Positions 29,628-49,092 of a DNA stretch of 64,000 nucleotides are shown piece after piece; the stretch's first letter is position 1; the number at the start of each line of letters is the position of its first letter. Source of the DNA: Pseudomonadota bacterium. GTDB taxonomy: Bacteria > Pseudomonadota > Gammaproteobacteria > Burkholderiales > JABEVD01. The stretch lies in the NCBI GenBank assembly GCA_021806605.1, contig JAJZQY010000001.1, positions 80,937 through 144,936 on the forward strand, written 5' to 3'. The translations under genes and the position numbers were made by a program. A model generated the notes under the pieces. It saw nothing but the letters and a program-made list of their open reading frames with translations. It ran no database searches and had not been told where the DNA came from.

Positions 29628-30503
29628 ATGACGAACCATCCCGGATCATTGTTGCGCAAGGAAATTCATGACCGCCAAACCATCGCGCCCTTCATCGGCA
29701 TTTTCGATGCCTTTTCGGCAACCATTGCATCGAAGCATTCTCCCAACCTTTTTTACAGCGGCTTTGGCTTTGCCGCCAGCCAATACGGCTTGCCCGACAT
29801 CGGTTACATTGCGTGGAGCGACATGGTTCAGGCAGCATGGCGCATTCGCCAGATTCTTCCGCAACACAAGCTGCTGGTGGACGTGGACGACGGCTATGTG
29901 GACGCATCGGTCGCCTGCCATGTCAGCGCCCAGCTCGAACGCATGGGGGTGGCCATGATCATGCTTGAGGATCAAAAGCGCCCGCGCCGCTGCGGGCACT
30001 TCGATGGCAAACTGCTGCTGCCGCTCGAAGAGTATATGGAAAAGCTGGAAATGGTTCTCGCGCAGCGCACCGAATTGTGCGTGCTCGCGCGCACCGACGC
30101 TTCCGGAGACGAAATTTACCGGCGACTGGAGCGCATTTCGGAAACCGATGTCGATGTGATCATGGTCGATGGGGTGCGTTCCATCGAAACTTTGCGGGAA
30201 GTGCGCAAAATTACCGACAAGCCCCTCCTGTTCAACCAGATAGCCGGGGGCAAAAGTCCCCGCGCGACCCTGTCCGAATTGCGGGCGGCCGGAGCCAGCA
30301 TGGCCCTGTATTCGACCCCCTGCCTCTTCGCAGCACAGGCTGCCATCGACGACTCCCTATCTGCCATCTTCTCCGATGATGGGCGGCTCCCCGACACAGG
30401 CTGCAGCGGATCGATCGGCGTTGCCGAATGCAGCTCCATGCTGCAGGAAAACATGACCCATCACTTGCCTGAAGTCGATTTGGCAAAATTCGTGCAAGCC
30501 TGA
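29628..30503 (+). CDS. isocitrate lyase/PEP mutase superfamily enzyme
   Basis: 291-aa TIM-barrel enzyme. It has the substrate-loop start GIFDAFSATIA, the metal-binding stretch VDVDDGYVDA, the catalytic loop PRRCGH (compare K[KR]CGH with the catalytic Cys of isocitrate and methylisocitrate lyases) and ARTDAS. The cysteine favours C-C lyase chemistry over PEP mutase, but the substrate is unknown; it is much shorter than true isocitrate lyase. ATG 29628 is about 9 bp after GGAG. The next gene, a TSUP exporter, starts 2 bp after its stop. Confidence 0.83.
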   Translation: MTNHPGSLLRKEIHDRQTIAPFIGIFDAFSATIASKHSPNLFYSGFGFAASQYGLPDIGYIAWSDMVQAAWRIRQILPQHKLLVDVDDGYVDASVACHVSAQLERMGVAMIMLEDQKRPRRCGHFDGKLLLPLEEYMEKLEMVLAQRTELCVLARTDASGDEIYRRLERISETDVDVIMVDGVRSIETLREVRKITDKPLLFNQIAGGKSPRATLSELRAAGASMALYSTPCLFAAQAAIDDSLSAIFSDDGRLPDTGCSGSIGVAECSSMLQENMTHHLPEVDLAKFVQA

Positions 30504-30505
30504 TC

Positions 30506-31318
30506 GTGTTGCACCAGATTCCGCTGTACCTCATAACCGGTTGCGCGGCGGGCTACCTGGCGGGGCTGTTCGGCGTCGGCGGGGGCATCATCATCGTGCC
30601 GATACTGGTTATCCTGTTCAAGGCATCGGGGATGTCCCCGACCGTGCTGATGCCCTTGGCCATCGGCACGTCGATGGCTATCGTATCCGTGACATCGCTG
30701 ATGGGCGCCCGCGCCCATCACGCCAACGGCAACGTGGACTGGAGAAACACCAGGCAGCTCTTGCCCGTGGTTCTGCTCGGCGTGGTGGCGGGTGCATTGC
30801 TCGGCTCGTACATCCCGCACGGATTTTTGACAGGATGCGTCATAAGCTTCGAACTGGGCGTGGCAGCGCTGTTCCTTTCCCAGGCCGTGCGCAAGAGCGG
30901 CCACGAAGAGACTTCCTCGAAAACCGCAATGCCTCAAGCCAGGATGCTCGCCATTTCCAGCATCCTCGGCCTGGTGTCCAGCGTAGTCGGCATTGCAGGC
31001 GGCACCCTGTTCGTACCGTTTCTGAGTTTCTGCGGAGTCGGCCTGCGCAAGGCGATCGGCACAGCAACTGCGCTCGGCGCGCCCCTGAGTCTGGTGGCCG
31101 CTTTCGTATACGTCATGACCGGATCGCTGGGAAGCCAGGCGTTGCCGCCCTATTCTCTGGGATATGTCTATCTTCCGGCCTTTCTGGGTTGCGTGATCGG
31201 CGGGATATGGACCACCAAGCATGGCGCAATGCTGGGCCTGAAACTGCGGCTGCGAATGCTGAAACTTTCCTTTGCGCTGATCCTGCTTGGAGCCGCAGGA
31301 AAAATGCTTTTCATATGA
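30506..31318 (+). CDS. TSUP (TauE/SafE) family anion exporter
   Basis: 270-aa inner-membrane protein with about eight helices and two family repeats: GYLAGLFGVGGGIIIVP near residue 15 and SSVVGIAGGTLFVPFLSF near residue 160. The family exports sulfite, sulfoacetate or other organic anions. GTG start 2 bp after the lyase stop, so the two are translationally coupled; the exporter may handle the lyase substrate or product. Confidence 0.9.
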   Translation: MLHQIPLYLITGCAAGYLAGLFGVGGGIIIVPILVILFKASGMSPTVLMPLAIGTSMAIVSVTSLMGARAHHANGNVDWRNTRQLLPVVLLGVVAGALLGSYIPHGFLTGCVISFELGVAALFLSQAVRKSGHEETSSKTAMPQARMLAISSILGLVSSVVGIAGGTLFVPFLSFCGVGLRKAIGTATALGAPLSLVAAFVYVMTGSLGSQALPPYSLGYVYLPAFLGCVIGGIWTTKHGAMLGLKLRLRMLKLSFALILLGAAGKMLFI

Positions 31319-31393
31319 GCGGTTGCCGCGAGGCTCTGTGCCTGGAATAGGGTTGTCGCAATACCGGACAACTTCGGCAAAAGCGCTTCTCGA

Positions 31394-31426
31394 CAAAAAA
31401 TCCGCCCCGCAGAATCCAGGGGCGGG
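31394..31426 (-). terminator. Rho-independent terminator, minus strand
   Basis: On the minus strand CCGCCCC (31425-31419) pairs with GGGGCGG (31408-31402) across a 10-nt loop, then ATTTTTTG (31401-31394). Seven consecutive G-C pairs and six T residues make it strong. No minus-strand protein gene ends near it, so it most likely ends the candidate sRNA. Confidence 0.55.
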
Positions 31427-31519
31427 AAACTCCGCTGTGCTGCTTGCCTCGATGCGCGTCAATCTGCTGAAGTCGTGATGTATGGCGCGCATTGATGTTG
31501 ACCCCATGACGCGCAAAGG
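31395..31519 (-). ncRNA. candidate small RNA, about 125 nt
   Basis: A minus-strand transcript is predicted from a sigma-70-like promoter (TTGAAT, 17 bp, TACAAT; 31554-31526), with start expected near 31519, to a strong Rho-independent terminator (31426-31394). Nothing on the minus strand between them codes convincingly. The terminal GC hairpin plus U-run is the kind of 3' end bound by Hfq, and hfq is encoded in this window at 40421-40660. No known sRNA family was recognised. Confidence 0.4.
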
Positions 31520-31525
31520 TTTCGT

Positions 31526-31554
31526 ATTGTATAAACTTGTTTCATTAAATTCAA
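31526..31554 (-). promoter_or_regulatory. sigma-70-like promoter of the candidate sRNA
   Basis: Minus strand: -35 TTGAAT (31554-31549), 17-bp spacer, -10 TACAAT (31531-31526). Four and five of six bases match consensus at optimal spacing. Confidence 0.45.
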
Positions 31555-31561
31555 TATAAAA

Positions 31562-31581
31562 ACAGTTTTGCGCAAAACTGT
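31562..31581. promoter_or_regulatory. perfect 20-bp palindrome, possible operator
   Basis: ACAGTTTTGCGCAAAACTGT is perfectly self-complementary. It starts 8 bp upstream of the sRNA -35 and ends 5 bp before a plus-strand TATGAT (31587-31592) that suits the 123-aa gene, so a bound dimer could control both directions. The MarR regulator at 32129 is a candidate binder. Confidence 0.5.
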
Positions 31582-31626
31582 CATGCTATGATATATCTAC
31601 GATGTCACCTTTTGGGAGGAAGGAAA

Positions 31627-31998
31627 ATGCTGCCTTTTGCCGTCACCGAACAAACCGAAGAAAAGGATATCGAAAAATTGGCTGCAATCGTCGACGAAGC
31701 GATCGAATTGATCTCATCCAAGACAGGTTTGACGAAGGAAGAGGCGCTCGGAATTCTGGAAGAGTTCAGCATCGCTGAACTCAGATCCGAAGCCCCTCTG
31801 TCCGAAAAAGGTTTCAGTGCTTCGAAATTCGTCAAGGCACTCGACAAAGGCGTCAAGGCGATAGCCTTTGCAACCGGCCTGAATTCAACGGAGATCAGCG
31901 CGATCTTCACACAGGAAAAGCATGCTCCGGCTATAAACGTTGTCCATCGGCTTCGCGAGAAATCGAAGCAAAACCGCTGGAGTCTAAGCCACTATTGA
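31627..31998 (+). CDS. hypothetical protein, 123 aa
   Basis: ATG 31627 is preceded by GGGAGGAAGGAAA. The protein is soluble, acidic in the first half and predicted mostly helical (KDIEKLAAIVDEAIELISSK, TGLTKEEALGILEEFS), with a basic C-terminal tail (RLREKSKQNRW). There are no cysteines. I do not recognise a family. It is 130 bp upstream of the MarR gene. Confidence 0.65.
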   Translation: MLPFAVTEQTEEKDIEKLAAIVDEAIELISSKTGLTKEEALGILEEFSIAELRSEAPLSEKGFSASKFVKALDKGVKAIAFATGLNSTEISAIFTQEKHAPAINVVHRLREKSKQNRWSLSHY

Positions 31999-32128
31999 CA
32001 TCCCCCCGGCGCCTCCTCGCACCCGGGTATCGGGGCGACACGCTTTGAACGAAGGCCGATGGCGTGAGAGAATTATCGCATTCTCAGAAAACAACCGAAT
32101 GCGGGAGATCATCATAGCACCTGTGAAA

Positions 32129-32626
32129 ATGTCGGACACAACCGCACAGCCTGAATCCGTAAGGGATGGCGCACGCGCGCATGAAGTTTTGAGGAAATTC
32201 CGGGTTGTGTTCAGCACCGTGAAGAACCATTTCAGGGACGTCGAGTTGAAATGCGGCGTGAGCGGCGCCCAGCTTTGGGCCATCTCGGAAATCGCGGAGA
32301 ATCCGGGGCTGCGTGTTTCCCAACTGGCTCAGGCCATGTCGGTACATCTGTCGACTGCCAGCAATCTTGTGGGCGCACTGGAAAAGAAGGGACTTGTCAG
32401 AAAAGAGCGCGGAATGGATCAGCGCGTCGTCTTTCTGCACCTTACCCAACAAGGCATCGAAACGGTATCTAGGGCGCCCAAGCCGATGATCGGCGTATTG
32501 CCCGACGCCCTTCAAAGACTGCCGAAAGACGAACTCGATGCACTTGGCGACAGCATGGACAAACTGATTGTGATGATGCTGGTCAAGGACGAGACTGCCG
32601 CCGCCAAGCCCCTTTCCGAAATCTAA
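32129..32626 (+). CDS. MarR-family transcriptional regulator
   Basis: About 165 aa with a winged helix: GAQLWAISEIAENPGLRVSQLAQAM (helices 2-3), recognition helix VHLSTASNLVGALEKKGLV and wing RKERGMDQRVVFLHLT, then a C-terminal dimerisation helix. MarR dimers bind palindromes of about 16-20 bp and usually repress. The start is uncertain: ATG 32129, ATG 32099 and TTG 32045 are in frame and none has a strong ribosome site. The stop is 6 bp before the next gene, so the regulator and the Tgl-like protein form one unit. Confidence 0.88.
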   Translation: MSDTTAQPESVRDGARAHEVLRKFRVVFSTVKNHFRDVELKCGVSGAQLWAISEIAENPGLRVSQLAQAMSVHLSTASNLVGALEKKGLVRKERGMDQRVVFLHLTQQGIETVSRAPKPMIGVLPDALQRLPKDELDALGDSMDKLIVMMLVKDETAAAKPLSEI

Positions 32627-32632
32627 AAATTT

Positions 32633-33769
32633 ATGGACGATTTGGATTATTCCCCGGGGGGAATTCTGCTTCGCGGGGAAGCCGCTGCGGATAGCGAGGC
32701 AGCACGGCGAAAATTCCAGCGCCATCTTGGTCAAATCGGCCTTGACTGGTGCGTTTCGATGTCCAGTGCGCCGCATGGCGGTGACGGCATCGTCAACTTT
32801 CGGCTCCGCAAGGACCTTGCCAAAGAATATACGCCTGACAGCGATACCACGAAGCTTCATCTGAAGCTCGATCTCGACACCCAAGGCAATCCCGGCGATC
32901 TCGAGAAGGAGATACTGCTTTCCATGCTGGCATCCCCCGTGGCATTCGGGTTCCCGAGCTACGAAGAGCTCGCTTCGTCCGTTCGCATCAGAAGAAATAT
33001 CGTCGAATCCGCCAGAAAAACCGTGCTGGCCTTCGATACGGAAGAGGCCGAACGTCCTGCGGATTGCTGGACCTATGCGGAAGATTCGGGCTTCACCATC
33101 CTGCCAGGAGCATCCCTCATTTCAGCGCTGCAGAAGGCAACCCAACCCTCCATTTCCGGAAGCCTTTACTCGTTTTCCTGCTACCGTGCGACTGAGTACG
33201 TCATTCTGCTCGCCATCGCCCAGGAACTAGAAACCTGCAATCCGGATCTGTACCGGCAGCTGCAAAAGCAGTGGGAAGTTCGGGCAATCAAGTCGGGAGA
33301 ATTCCACGACGTGTTTCTGCGCGAATACGGTTCCATGGACGCACCCCTGCCGCCGAAATATTATGTTCCCGGCGATCGTCTCTGGTTCAGGAACCCGGAC
33401 CAGCACTCATCTGACGTCAAGGGTTACGAAGGGTCTTGGGTATTCTATCTGGGAAGCGGGTTGTTCACTAATTTCTGGAAGAAAGGTCAGGATTACACAC
33501 TGACTTCGAAATGCCTGGAGCTCTTCCACTGGCGGAATGCTACTTGCCGGGACGAGGAAGGAAAGCTGCAAATCGACGAGGCGACTGTCGAAGAACTCGT
33601 CGCGGCCTCGATGAGCGATCAGGCCGAGGCCGAGCGCATCCTGCAGGAGATGGTGCGGCTCCGGGAGCCTCAGGGCGTTTATATCGACGGCGGCTGCATC
33701 GACACTTCTCGCGAATATCCGCGCCTTGTCTGCCCGGGCACGTCCGATCTCGTGCTCCCGACTACCTAG
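32633..33769 (+). CDS. protein resembling Bacillus transglutaminase Tgl
   Basis: 378 aa, no signal peptide. From memory of B. subtilis Tgl (245 aa) I can align several blocks: SPVAFGFPSYEELASSVRIR with Tgl TPVQFDYHSIAEL and following, RRNIVESARKT with MNIVAAAKT, GSLYSFSCYRATEYV with GPFYAFECATAIV, and PGDRLWFRNPD with LGDCLYFKNPE. Catalytic Cys116 of Tgl corresponds to Cys183 here. Tgl Glu187 and His200 do not align with Glu and His (Ser268 and about Asn280/Phe281 instead). So the fold is suggested, but activity is unproven. N-terminal 95 and C-terminal 80 residues are extra, with Cys355 and Cys370. Coupled to marR. Confidence 0.55.
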   Translation: MDDLDYSPGGILLRGEAAADSEAARRKFQRHLGQIGLDWCVSMSSAPHGGDGIVNFRLRKDLAKEYTPDSDTTKLHLKLDLDTQGNPGDLEKEILLSMLASPVAFGFPSYEELASSVRIRRNIVESARKTVLAFDTEEAERPADCWTYAEDSGFTILPGASLISALQKATQPSISGSLYSFSCYRATEYVILLAIAQELETCNPDLYRQLQKQWEVRAIKSGEFHDVFLREYGSMDAPLPPKYYVPGDRLWFRNPDQHSSDVKGYEGSWVFYLGSGLFTNFWKKGQDYTLTSKCLELFHWRNATCRDEEGKLQIDEATVEELVAASMSDQAEAERILQEMVRLREPQGVYIDGGCIDTSREYPRLVCPGTSDLVLPTT

Positions 33770-33850
33770 CCGAGAATCCGGGCAACCCGAAGAGCATGCA
33801 ACAGGATTACCTCATCGAGCAAATCTCAGCTTGCTGAATCCCAATAGCCG

Positions 33851-34606
33851 TCACGAAGCCCACCAATGTCGCGCCAGGCTCTGCATCAACAACACCATCC
33901 CGATGACGATAAGTCCAATATGCACGAACCGAATGAAAGATGTGCCCTGCATGCGTTGATTCGCCATTCTCCCAAGCAGGATCGCCAGCAAGGCGCCAGG
34001 CAACGACAGCCAGTACAGGTGGGTTATCTCGGAAGTCAAAAGCCCTGTTTTCCAAAACCCGCCCATGACGACGGTGCTTGCAGGGAGAAAATATCCCTGC
34101 AAAGTCGCGCGAAAATGCTGGGGAGACCATCGCTTCAGCGTTCCGTATACGATAAGCGGCGGTCCGTTCATTCCATAGGCTCCCCCCAGAATGCCGGCGC
34201 CGAAGCCGAAAAGCCAGTCGAGCCTGTTGCTGCTGAGGAGAGGCGGTCTTTCGGAAATCAGCAAATAGGATGAAAACATGATGATTACGCAGGCGAGCAG
34301 ACCCTTCACGATCGATTCCCTCACCATGGTCAGCAGCAACAGACCGAAGGGTATGCCCACAAGCGTCGCCAGGAATAATGAAATGGCGTTTCGAACATGG
34401 ATGTGGCGCCAGTCCTGCAATACGATGAGACCTGCAATGGTGATCGAAAGCAGGACGGCAACCGGCGCAGCATCCCTGACGGGAATGACTAGCGACAGCA
34501 GGGGTACCGCAATCAATGCCTCGCCGAACCCGAATGCCGACCGGATGAAAGAAGCTCCGAAAAGGATAACCACCACCAGAAACGATGTCCAATCGGATAC
34601 GTGCAT
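33851..34606 (-). CDS. second TSUP (TauE/SafE) family exporter
   Basis: 251-aa inner-membrane protein with about eight helices and the family repeats (IRSAFGFGEALIAVPLLSLV near residue 20; FGAGILGGAYGMNGPPLIVY near 135). Only distantly similar to the TSUP protein at 30506-31318. Substrate unknown. The start at 34606 is the first ATG that gives a membrane-type N-terminus. Convergent with the Tgl-like gene across 81 bp that hold nothing recognisable. Confidence 0.88.
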   Translation of the reverse strand: MHVSDWTSFLVVVILFGASFIRSAFGFGEALIAVPLLSLVIPVRDAAPVAVLLSITIAGLIVLQDWRHIHVRNAISLFLATLVGIPFGLLLLTMVRESIVKGLLACVIIMFSSYLLISERPPLLSSNRLDWLFGFGAGILGGAYGMNGPPLIVYGTLKRWSPQHFRATLQGYFLPASTVVMGGFWKTGLLTSEITHLYWLSLPGALLAILLGRMANQRMQGTSFIRFVHIGLIVIGMVLLMQSLARHWWAS

Positions 34607-48025: not shown

Positions 48026-49092
48026 GCGGCAGCCCCGCTGCGCCGGGTCTTGTCCATCACCTTCCCGGCAAGCTGGCCGCAGGCCGCATCGATGTCGTCT
48101 CCGCGCGTCCTCCTGGTCGTGACGACGAGTCCGGCATCCATCAGAACAGCCTTGAAAGCCTCTATGGCGGCATCCTTGGAACGCCCATATCCCGAATGGG
48201 GAAAGGGGTTGAAGGGAATGAGATTGAATTTGGAAGGCACGTCCTTCACCAGTTTCACCAGCTCCCTGGCGTGGGAAAGCGTATCGTTCACGCCATCCAG
48301 CATCACGTATTCGAAAGTGACGAAATCCCGCGGGGCGTGCTCGATATAGCGGCGACATGCCGCCATCAATTCCTTCAACGGATATTTTTTGTTGATCGGC
48401 ACCAGAACGTCGCGCAACGCATCGTTGGGGGCATGCAACGAAACCGCAAGCGCGACGGGGCAACGCTCCCCCAGCCTGTCCATCGCAGGAACAATCCCGG
48501 AAGTGCTGACCGTCACGCGGCGTCGCGACAGACCGTAGGCAGAATCGTCGAGCATCAGGTTGAGGGAAGTCACGACGTTCTCGAAATTGAGCAATGGCTC
48601 GCCCATTCCCATCATCACGACATTGCTGATGATGCGCTCGCCCCCCGGCTCACGACCCAGGGCGCGATTTGCCCACCAGAGCTGACCGATGATTTCGGCA
48701 ACGGAAAGGTTCCTGTTGAAGCCCTGCCTGCCCGTGGAACAGAAGCTACACTCCAGCGCGCATCCCACCTGGCTAGATATGCAAAGCGTCCCCCGATTCG
48801 CTTCCGGAATGAACACGGTCTCGACGGCATTGCCTTCGTCGACAGCGAGCAGCCATTTGCGCGTTCCGTCGAAGGCATCGAGCTCCCGCATCAGATCTGG
48901 AGCGCGTATCTCGGCCTTTTCCCCGAGCTTTTCCCGGAGGCTTTTTGCAAGATCGCTCATGTTGGAAAAGTCGTCTTCCCCGAAGCGATGCATCCATTTC
49001 ATCACCTGCCCGGCGCGAAAAGGTTTCTCCCCGATTTCAGAAAAAAAACCGGCGAGCTTTTCGGCGTCGAAGTCGAGCAGGTTTACCGTCAT
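48022..49092 (-). CDS. rlmN: dual-specificity RNA methyltransferase RlmN
   Basis: 356 aa radical SAM enzyme that methylates A2503 of 23S rRNA and A37 of some tRNAs. N-terminal helical domain, then [14 protein letters not shown] with the CxxxCxxC cluster, and a C-terminal Cys near residue 339 (DAACGQLAG) as the methyl-carrying cysteine. ndk ends on its first base (TGATG at 49092). Confidence 0.97.

What the first reader, a model, noticed from the sequence alone, without database searches (positions are those of the whole stretch)
31394..31554. Candidate intergenic small RNA with promoter and strong terminator
A 17-bp-spaced TTGAAT/TACAAT promoter and a GC-hairpin plus T6 terminator, both on the minus strand, bound about 125 nt that carry no convincing minus-strand protein gene. 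I know of no described RNA here. Hfq is present in the genome.
Basis: partly seen in the sequence, partly recalled or inferred. Interest (0 to 1): 0.6.

Follow-up and report, generated by a model that had tools for sequence, protein, structure and literature searches.

The report
Probable lineage-specific intergenic small RNA gene
Between two protein genes of an uncultured Burkholderiales bacterium there is probably a short gene for a roughly 120-nucleotide regulatory RNA, with its own start and stop signals, found in only one other sequenced species and with an unknown target.

Summary
The described elements are present: a minus-strand TTGAAT-N17-TACAAT (31554-31526) and, about 100 nt downstream, a 7-GC-pair hairpin with T6 (31425-31395), giving a predicted transcript of about 120-125 nt. 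A 9/12 promoter match alone is chance level (1 found, 1.1 expected). The terminator is stronger evidence: it is one of ten strict terminators on the 220-kb contig and the only one with a qualifying promoter 60-250 nt upstream. No minus-strand protein gene feeds it. One related species (G006) keeps the same neighbours, all 12 promoter bases, the spacing, and an identical 32-nt terminator core, while flanking spacer and RNA body drift to 81-83% identity. Frame-breaking indels and rapid drift of the overlapping shadow ORF argue against a protein. No Rfam match, no second copy, no homologue in the other 7 genomes of the genus or in about 390 sampled Burkholderiales. Best reading: a young, lineage-specific, independently transcribed sRNA divergent from an uncharacterised small-protein gene, probably a trans-acting base-pairing RNA. 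Transcription, Hfq binding and targets are undemonstrated. It is an ordinary kind of object in an obscure lineage.

The parts
31549..31554 (-). -35 hexamer TTGAAT
   Evidence: identical in G006
31526..31531 (-). -10 hexamer TACAAT, 17-nt spacer
   Evidence: identical in G006
31395..31519 (-). predicted sRNA, about 120-125 nt, TSS inferred about 7 nt after the -10
   Evidence: sequence; single-copy homologue in G006 at 86% over 206 nt; covariance model matches only these two
31426..31519 (-). sRNA body; imperfect long hairpin predicted, not more stable than shuffles (z -0.83); 83% identical to G006 with 1-nt and 6-nt indels
31395..31425 (-). intrinsic terminator: 7 G-C pairs, 10-nt loop, A, then T6
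   Evidence: part of a 32-nt run identical in G006
31588..31998 (+). divergently transcribed uncharacterised small protein gene (likely start ATG 31627 after GGGAGG; 123 aa); adjacent to the sRNA promoter
30506..31318 (+). TSUP (TauE/SafE) permease gene, convergent with the sRNA

Best explanation
The minus strand of 31519-31395 is an independent small RNA gene, transcribed from a sigma-70-type promoter and ended by an intrinsic terminator, with its promoter region back to back with that of a small protein gene (31627-31998, +). Shown: the anatomy, its preservation in a second species at the same place, and the absence of a minus-strand gene that would need the terminator. Inferred: that it is transcribed, and that it acts in trans by base pairing, possibly with Hfq, which the genome encodes. 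Because no plus-strand terminator was found between TSUP and the small protein gene, it could also pair in cis with read-through TSUP mRNA. It was gained, or is retained, together with the small-protein and MarR genes in a sublineage.
For: Promoter and terminator present on the same strand; only promoter-terminator pair of its kind on 220 kb; another well-formed terminator on the contig without a same-strand ORF follows a tRNA-Asp/tRNA-Val pair, so orphan terminators can mark RNA genes here; the same promoter and terminator are found in G006; identities: hexamers 100%, terminator 97% (32-nt identical core), versus 81% for the adjacent spacer and 83% for the body; the longest two identical runs in the intergenic region (33 and 32 nt) coincide with the -35/upstream block and the terminator, permutation p about 0.04; Hfq encoded nearby.
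Against: No expression data. Only two species, so conservation statistics are weak. The body folds no better than shuffles (z -0.83) and shows no compensatory changes. The promoter match alone is at chance level, and the conserved AT-rich block also serves the divergent plus-strand promoter. Absent from 7 other genomes of the genus.
Confidence: 0.68

Rival explanations
1. Only the terminator is functional: it is a roadblock that stops antisense transcription (from spurious promoters or from the minus-strand TSUP2 gene 33851-34606) from entering the TSUP gene; the promoter match is accidental.
For: Terminator conserved more strongly than the body; promoter match is at chance level.
Against: In G006 MarR is followed directly by the purA end and TSUP2 is absent from the spot, yet the terminator is kept; the only promoter-like pair on the strand sits about 100 nt upstream and its hexamers are kept base for base.
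Confidence: 0.14
2. The hairpin serves the plus strand, as a 3' end stabiliser or Rho-associated hairpin of TSUP mRNA; nothing is transcribed from the minus strand.
For: It lies 84 nt after the TSUP stop, and no plus-strand terminator is found there.
Against: The T tract is only on the minus strand and is conserved; orthologous TSUP genes in G001, G004 and G008 are not followed by this hairpin in the sequence available.
Confidence: 0.1
3. A minus-strand protein gene (ORF 30461-31516, 351 aa, or a short leader peptide).
For: The frame is open in the window and in G006.
Against: Shadow-frame amino acid identity falls much faster than TSUP's (85 vs 95%, 80 vs 90%, 53 vs 79%, 41 vs 72%) and has a stop in G001; a 1-nt indel breaks the frame in the first third; the terminator would cut it.
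Confidence: 0.03
4. All matches are chance in an AT-rich divergent promoter region; the region is just the small-protein gene's promoter plus a non-functional spacer.
For: About 0.45 promoter-terminator pairs expected per 220 kb by chance (my arithmetic from the counts).
Against: Conservation of the terminator core and hexamers amid drift.
Confidence: 0.05

Closest known systems
Hfq-associated trans-acting intergenic sRNAs of proteobacteria (general class, from established knowledge)
   Same: about 120 nt, own sigma-70-type promoter, GC hairpin plus U tract, intergenic, Hfq gene present
   Different: No demonstrated transcript, Hfq binding or target; no sequence or covariance similarity to any Rfam family
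RF02837 anti-hemB (Burkholderia RNA 7)
   Same: Burkholderiales sRNA; weak sub-threshold alignment over 31393-31491
   Different: 10.8 bits against a gathering score of 49.5, E 6.5: chance level

Membership tests
independently transcribed intergenic sRNA (class) | own promoter | tested here: inconclusive
   9/12 consensus, chance-level alone, but hexamers and spacing conserved in the one relative
independently transcribed intergenic sRNA (class) | own intrinsic terminator on the same strand | tested here: met
   7 GC pairs + T6, conserved; a sequence test, termination itself not assayed
independently transcribed intergenic sRNA (class) | no protein-coding function | tested here: met
   indels; shadow ORF drifts faster than TSUP
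independently transcribed intergenic sRNA (class) | detected transcript of matching size | not testable with these tools
   no RNA data held
Hfq-dependent trans-acting sRNA | Hfq in genome | tested here: met
Hfq-dependent trans-acting sRNA | Hfq binding and a conserved mRNA target | tested here: inconclusive
   duplex energies with 185 start regions gave no outlier for TSUP, MarR, barrel or small protein; binding not testable
any Rfam family | score at or above the gathering threshold | tested here: not met
RF02837 anti-hemB | score at or above 49.5 bits | tested here: not met
   10.8 bits

The most novel reading that the evidence does not exclude
A new sRNA family restricted to one sublineage of this uncultured Burkholderiales genus, that arrived together with the divergent small-protein gene and the MarR gene and regulates, or is regulated with, that small-protein family.
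Probability: 0.25. Interest if true: 0.35.

Novelty: new member of a known kind. Interest (0 to 1): 0.25.

Why it matters
If transcribed, it would be an undescribed sRNA in an uncultured lineage and a small example of a young regulatory RNA gene appearing in a gene cassette between TSUP and purA. It does not change a general picture: bacterial genomes contain many such lineage-specific sRNAs.

Tried and rejected
Rfam at gathering and permissive thresholds: nothing. Homologues in about 390 other sampled Burkholderiales: only chance hits; the two weak ones and the G001 hit are short (21-28 nt), and the G001 one lies inside an ORF; the G172 one looks coding too. Covariance model from the two sequences against the genus: only the two founders are significant, next best E 0.26. 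Second copy in own genome: none. sRNA beside paralogues of the small protein: upstream regions, read by eye where printed on the coding strand, show no comparable terminator. Target prediction by duplex energy: no outlier; ignores accessibility and uses only one contig. One pair alignment used a truncated G006 segment and was replaced. A 16S search in the own assembly found none. Literature searches gave nothing on this RNA.

Full report
Observation. The minus strand of 31554-31395 reads TTGAAT-17 nt-TACAAT, then about 125 nt ending in CCGCCCCTGGATTCTGCGGGGCGGATTTTTT. The consensus scan finds the promoter (9 of 12) but expects 1.1 in the shuffled region, so the promoter alone says nothing. The terminator hairpin has seven G-C pairs, -15.4 kcal/mol, z -2.5. 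On the 219,782-base contig a strict scan finds ten terminators and 103 promoter-like sites on both strands; only this terminator has a promoter 60-250 nt upstream on its strand. From those counts about 0.45 such pairs would be expected by chance, so the pairing by itself is suggestive, not proof.

Context. The flanking genes TSUP (30506-31318), small protein (start probably 31627) and MarR (32045-32626) are all on the plus strand, so no minus-strand protein gene feeds the terminator. Another well-formed terminator on the contig without a same-strand ORF (C82:180160) follows a tRNA-Asp/tRNA-Val pair.

Relatives. BLAST of the region over 41 and then 399 genomes of the order gives one real homologue, G006, at 84-86%; the named-genome collection holds a matching contig (same length, 60,524 bases) of MAG DS3.bin61, JAKBJU010000015.1. 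It lies at the same place between TSUP and the small protein. Promoter hexamers and spacing are identical, the terminator 31394-31425 is identical over 32 nt, whereas the TSUP-terminator spacer is 81% and the RNA body 83% identical. In the aligned intergenic region the two longest identical runs (33 and 32 nt) fall on the -35/upstream block and the terminator; shuffled columns give as long a pair in about 4% of trials. The upstream block is shared with the presumed divergent promoter of the small protein, which weakens that half of the evidence. The two RNAs keep the predicted pairs but without compensatory changes.

Distribution. G001, the next relative by TSUP identity (90%), has TSUP followed after about 200 nt by the purA end, and G004 has a GGDEF/EAL-like gene there; G006 has TSUP-sRNA-small protein-MarR-purA, and the window has two further genes (32633-34606) before purA. 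A covariance model of the pair finds nothing else significant in the genus. The sRNA therefore belongs to an accessory stretch.

Not a protein. The long minus-strand ORF is a shadow of TSUP: its identity drops to 41% where TSUP holds 72%, and it has a stop in G001. The RNA body has a 1-nt and a 6-nt indel between the two species.

Function. Hfq is encoded about 9 kb away, so a trans-acting base-pairing RNA is the default reading by established knowledge of proteobacterial sRNAs; a cis effect on read-through TSUP mRNA is possible because no plus-strand terminator was found between TSUP and the next gene. Duplex energies against 185 start regions of the contig do not single out TSUP, MarR, the barrel gene or the small protein. 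Target and role remain undetermined.

Verdict. Observation confirmed; the sRNA interpretation is likely but unproven; ordinary kind, lineage-specific member.

Noticed in passing
31564-31583: Perfect 20-bp palindrome ACAGTTTTGCGCAAAACTGT between the two divergent promoters; degenerate in G006 (ACAGTTTTGTTAAAAACGGT), but a similar TTTTGCACAAAA precedes a homologue of the small protein in G002 (L031). Possibly an operator of the small-protein gene.
   Followed up: partly
31588-31998: Uncharacterised small protein without a Pfam or NCBIfam match above cut-off; homologues in 8 of 9 genomes of the genus, with a second copy (57%) in both the window's genome and G006.
   Followed up: partly
32633-34606: Protein-glutamine gamma-glutamyltransferase-like gene (PF20085) and a second putative permease gene on the minus strand, absent at this place in G006, where MarR is followed directly by purA.
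   Followed up: partly
48449-48518: ARAGORN calls a 70-nt tRNA-Arg(gcg), but Rfam's tRNA model does not reach its threshold anywhere in the window; probably a false call.
   Followed up: no
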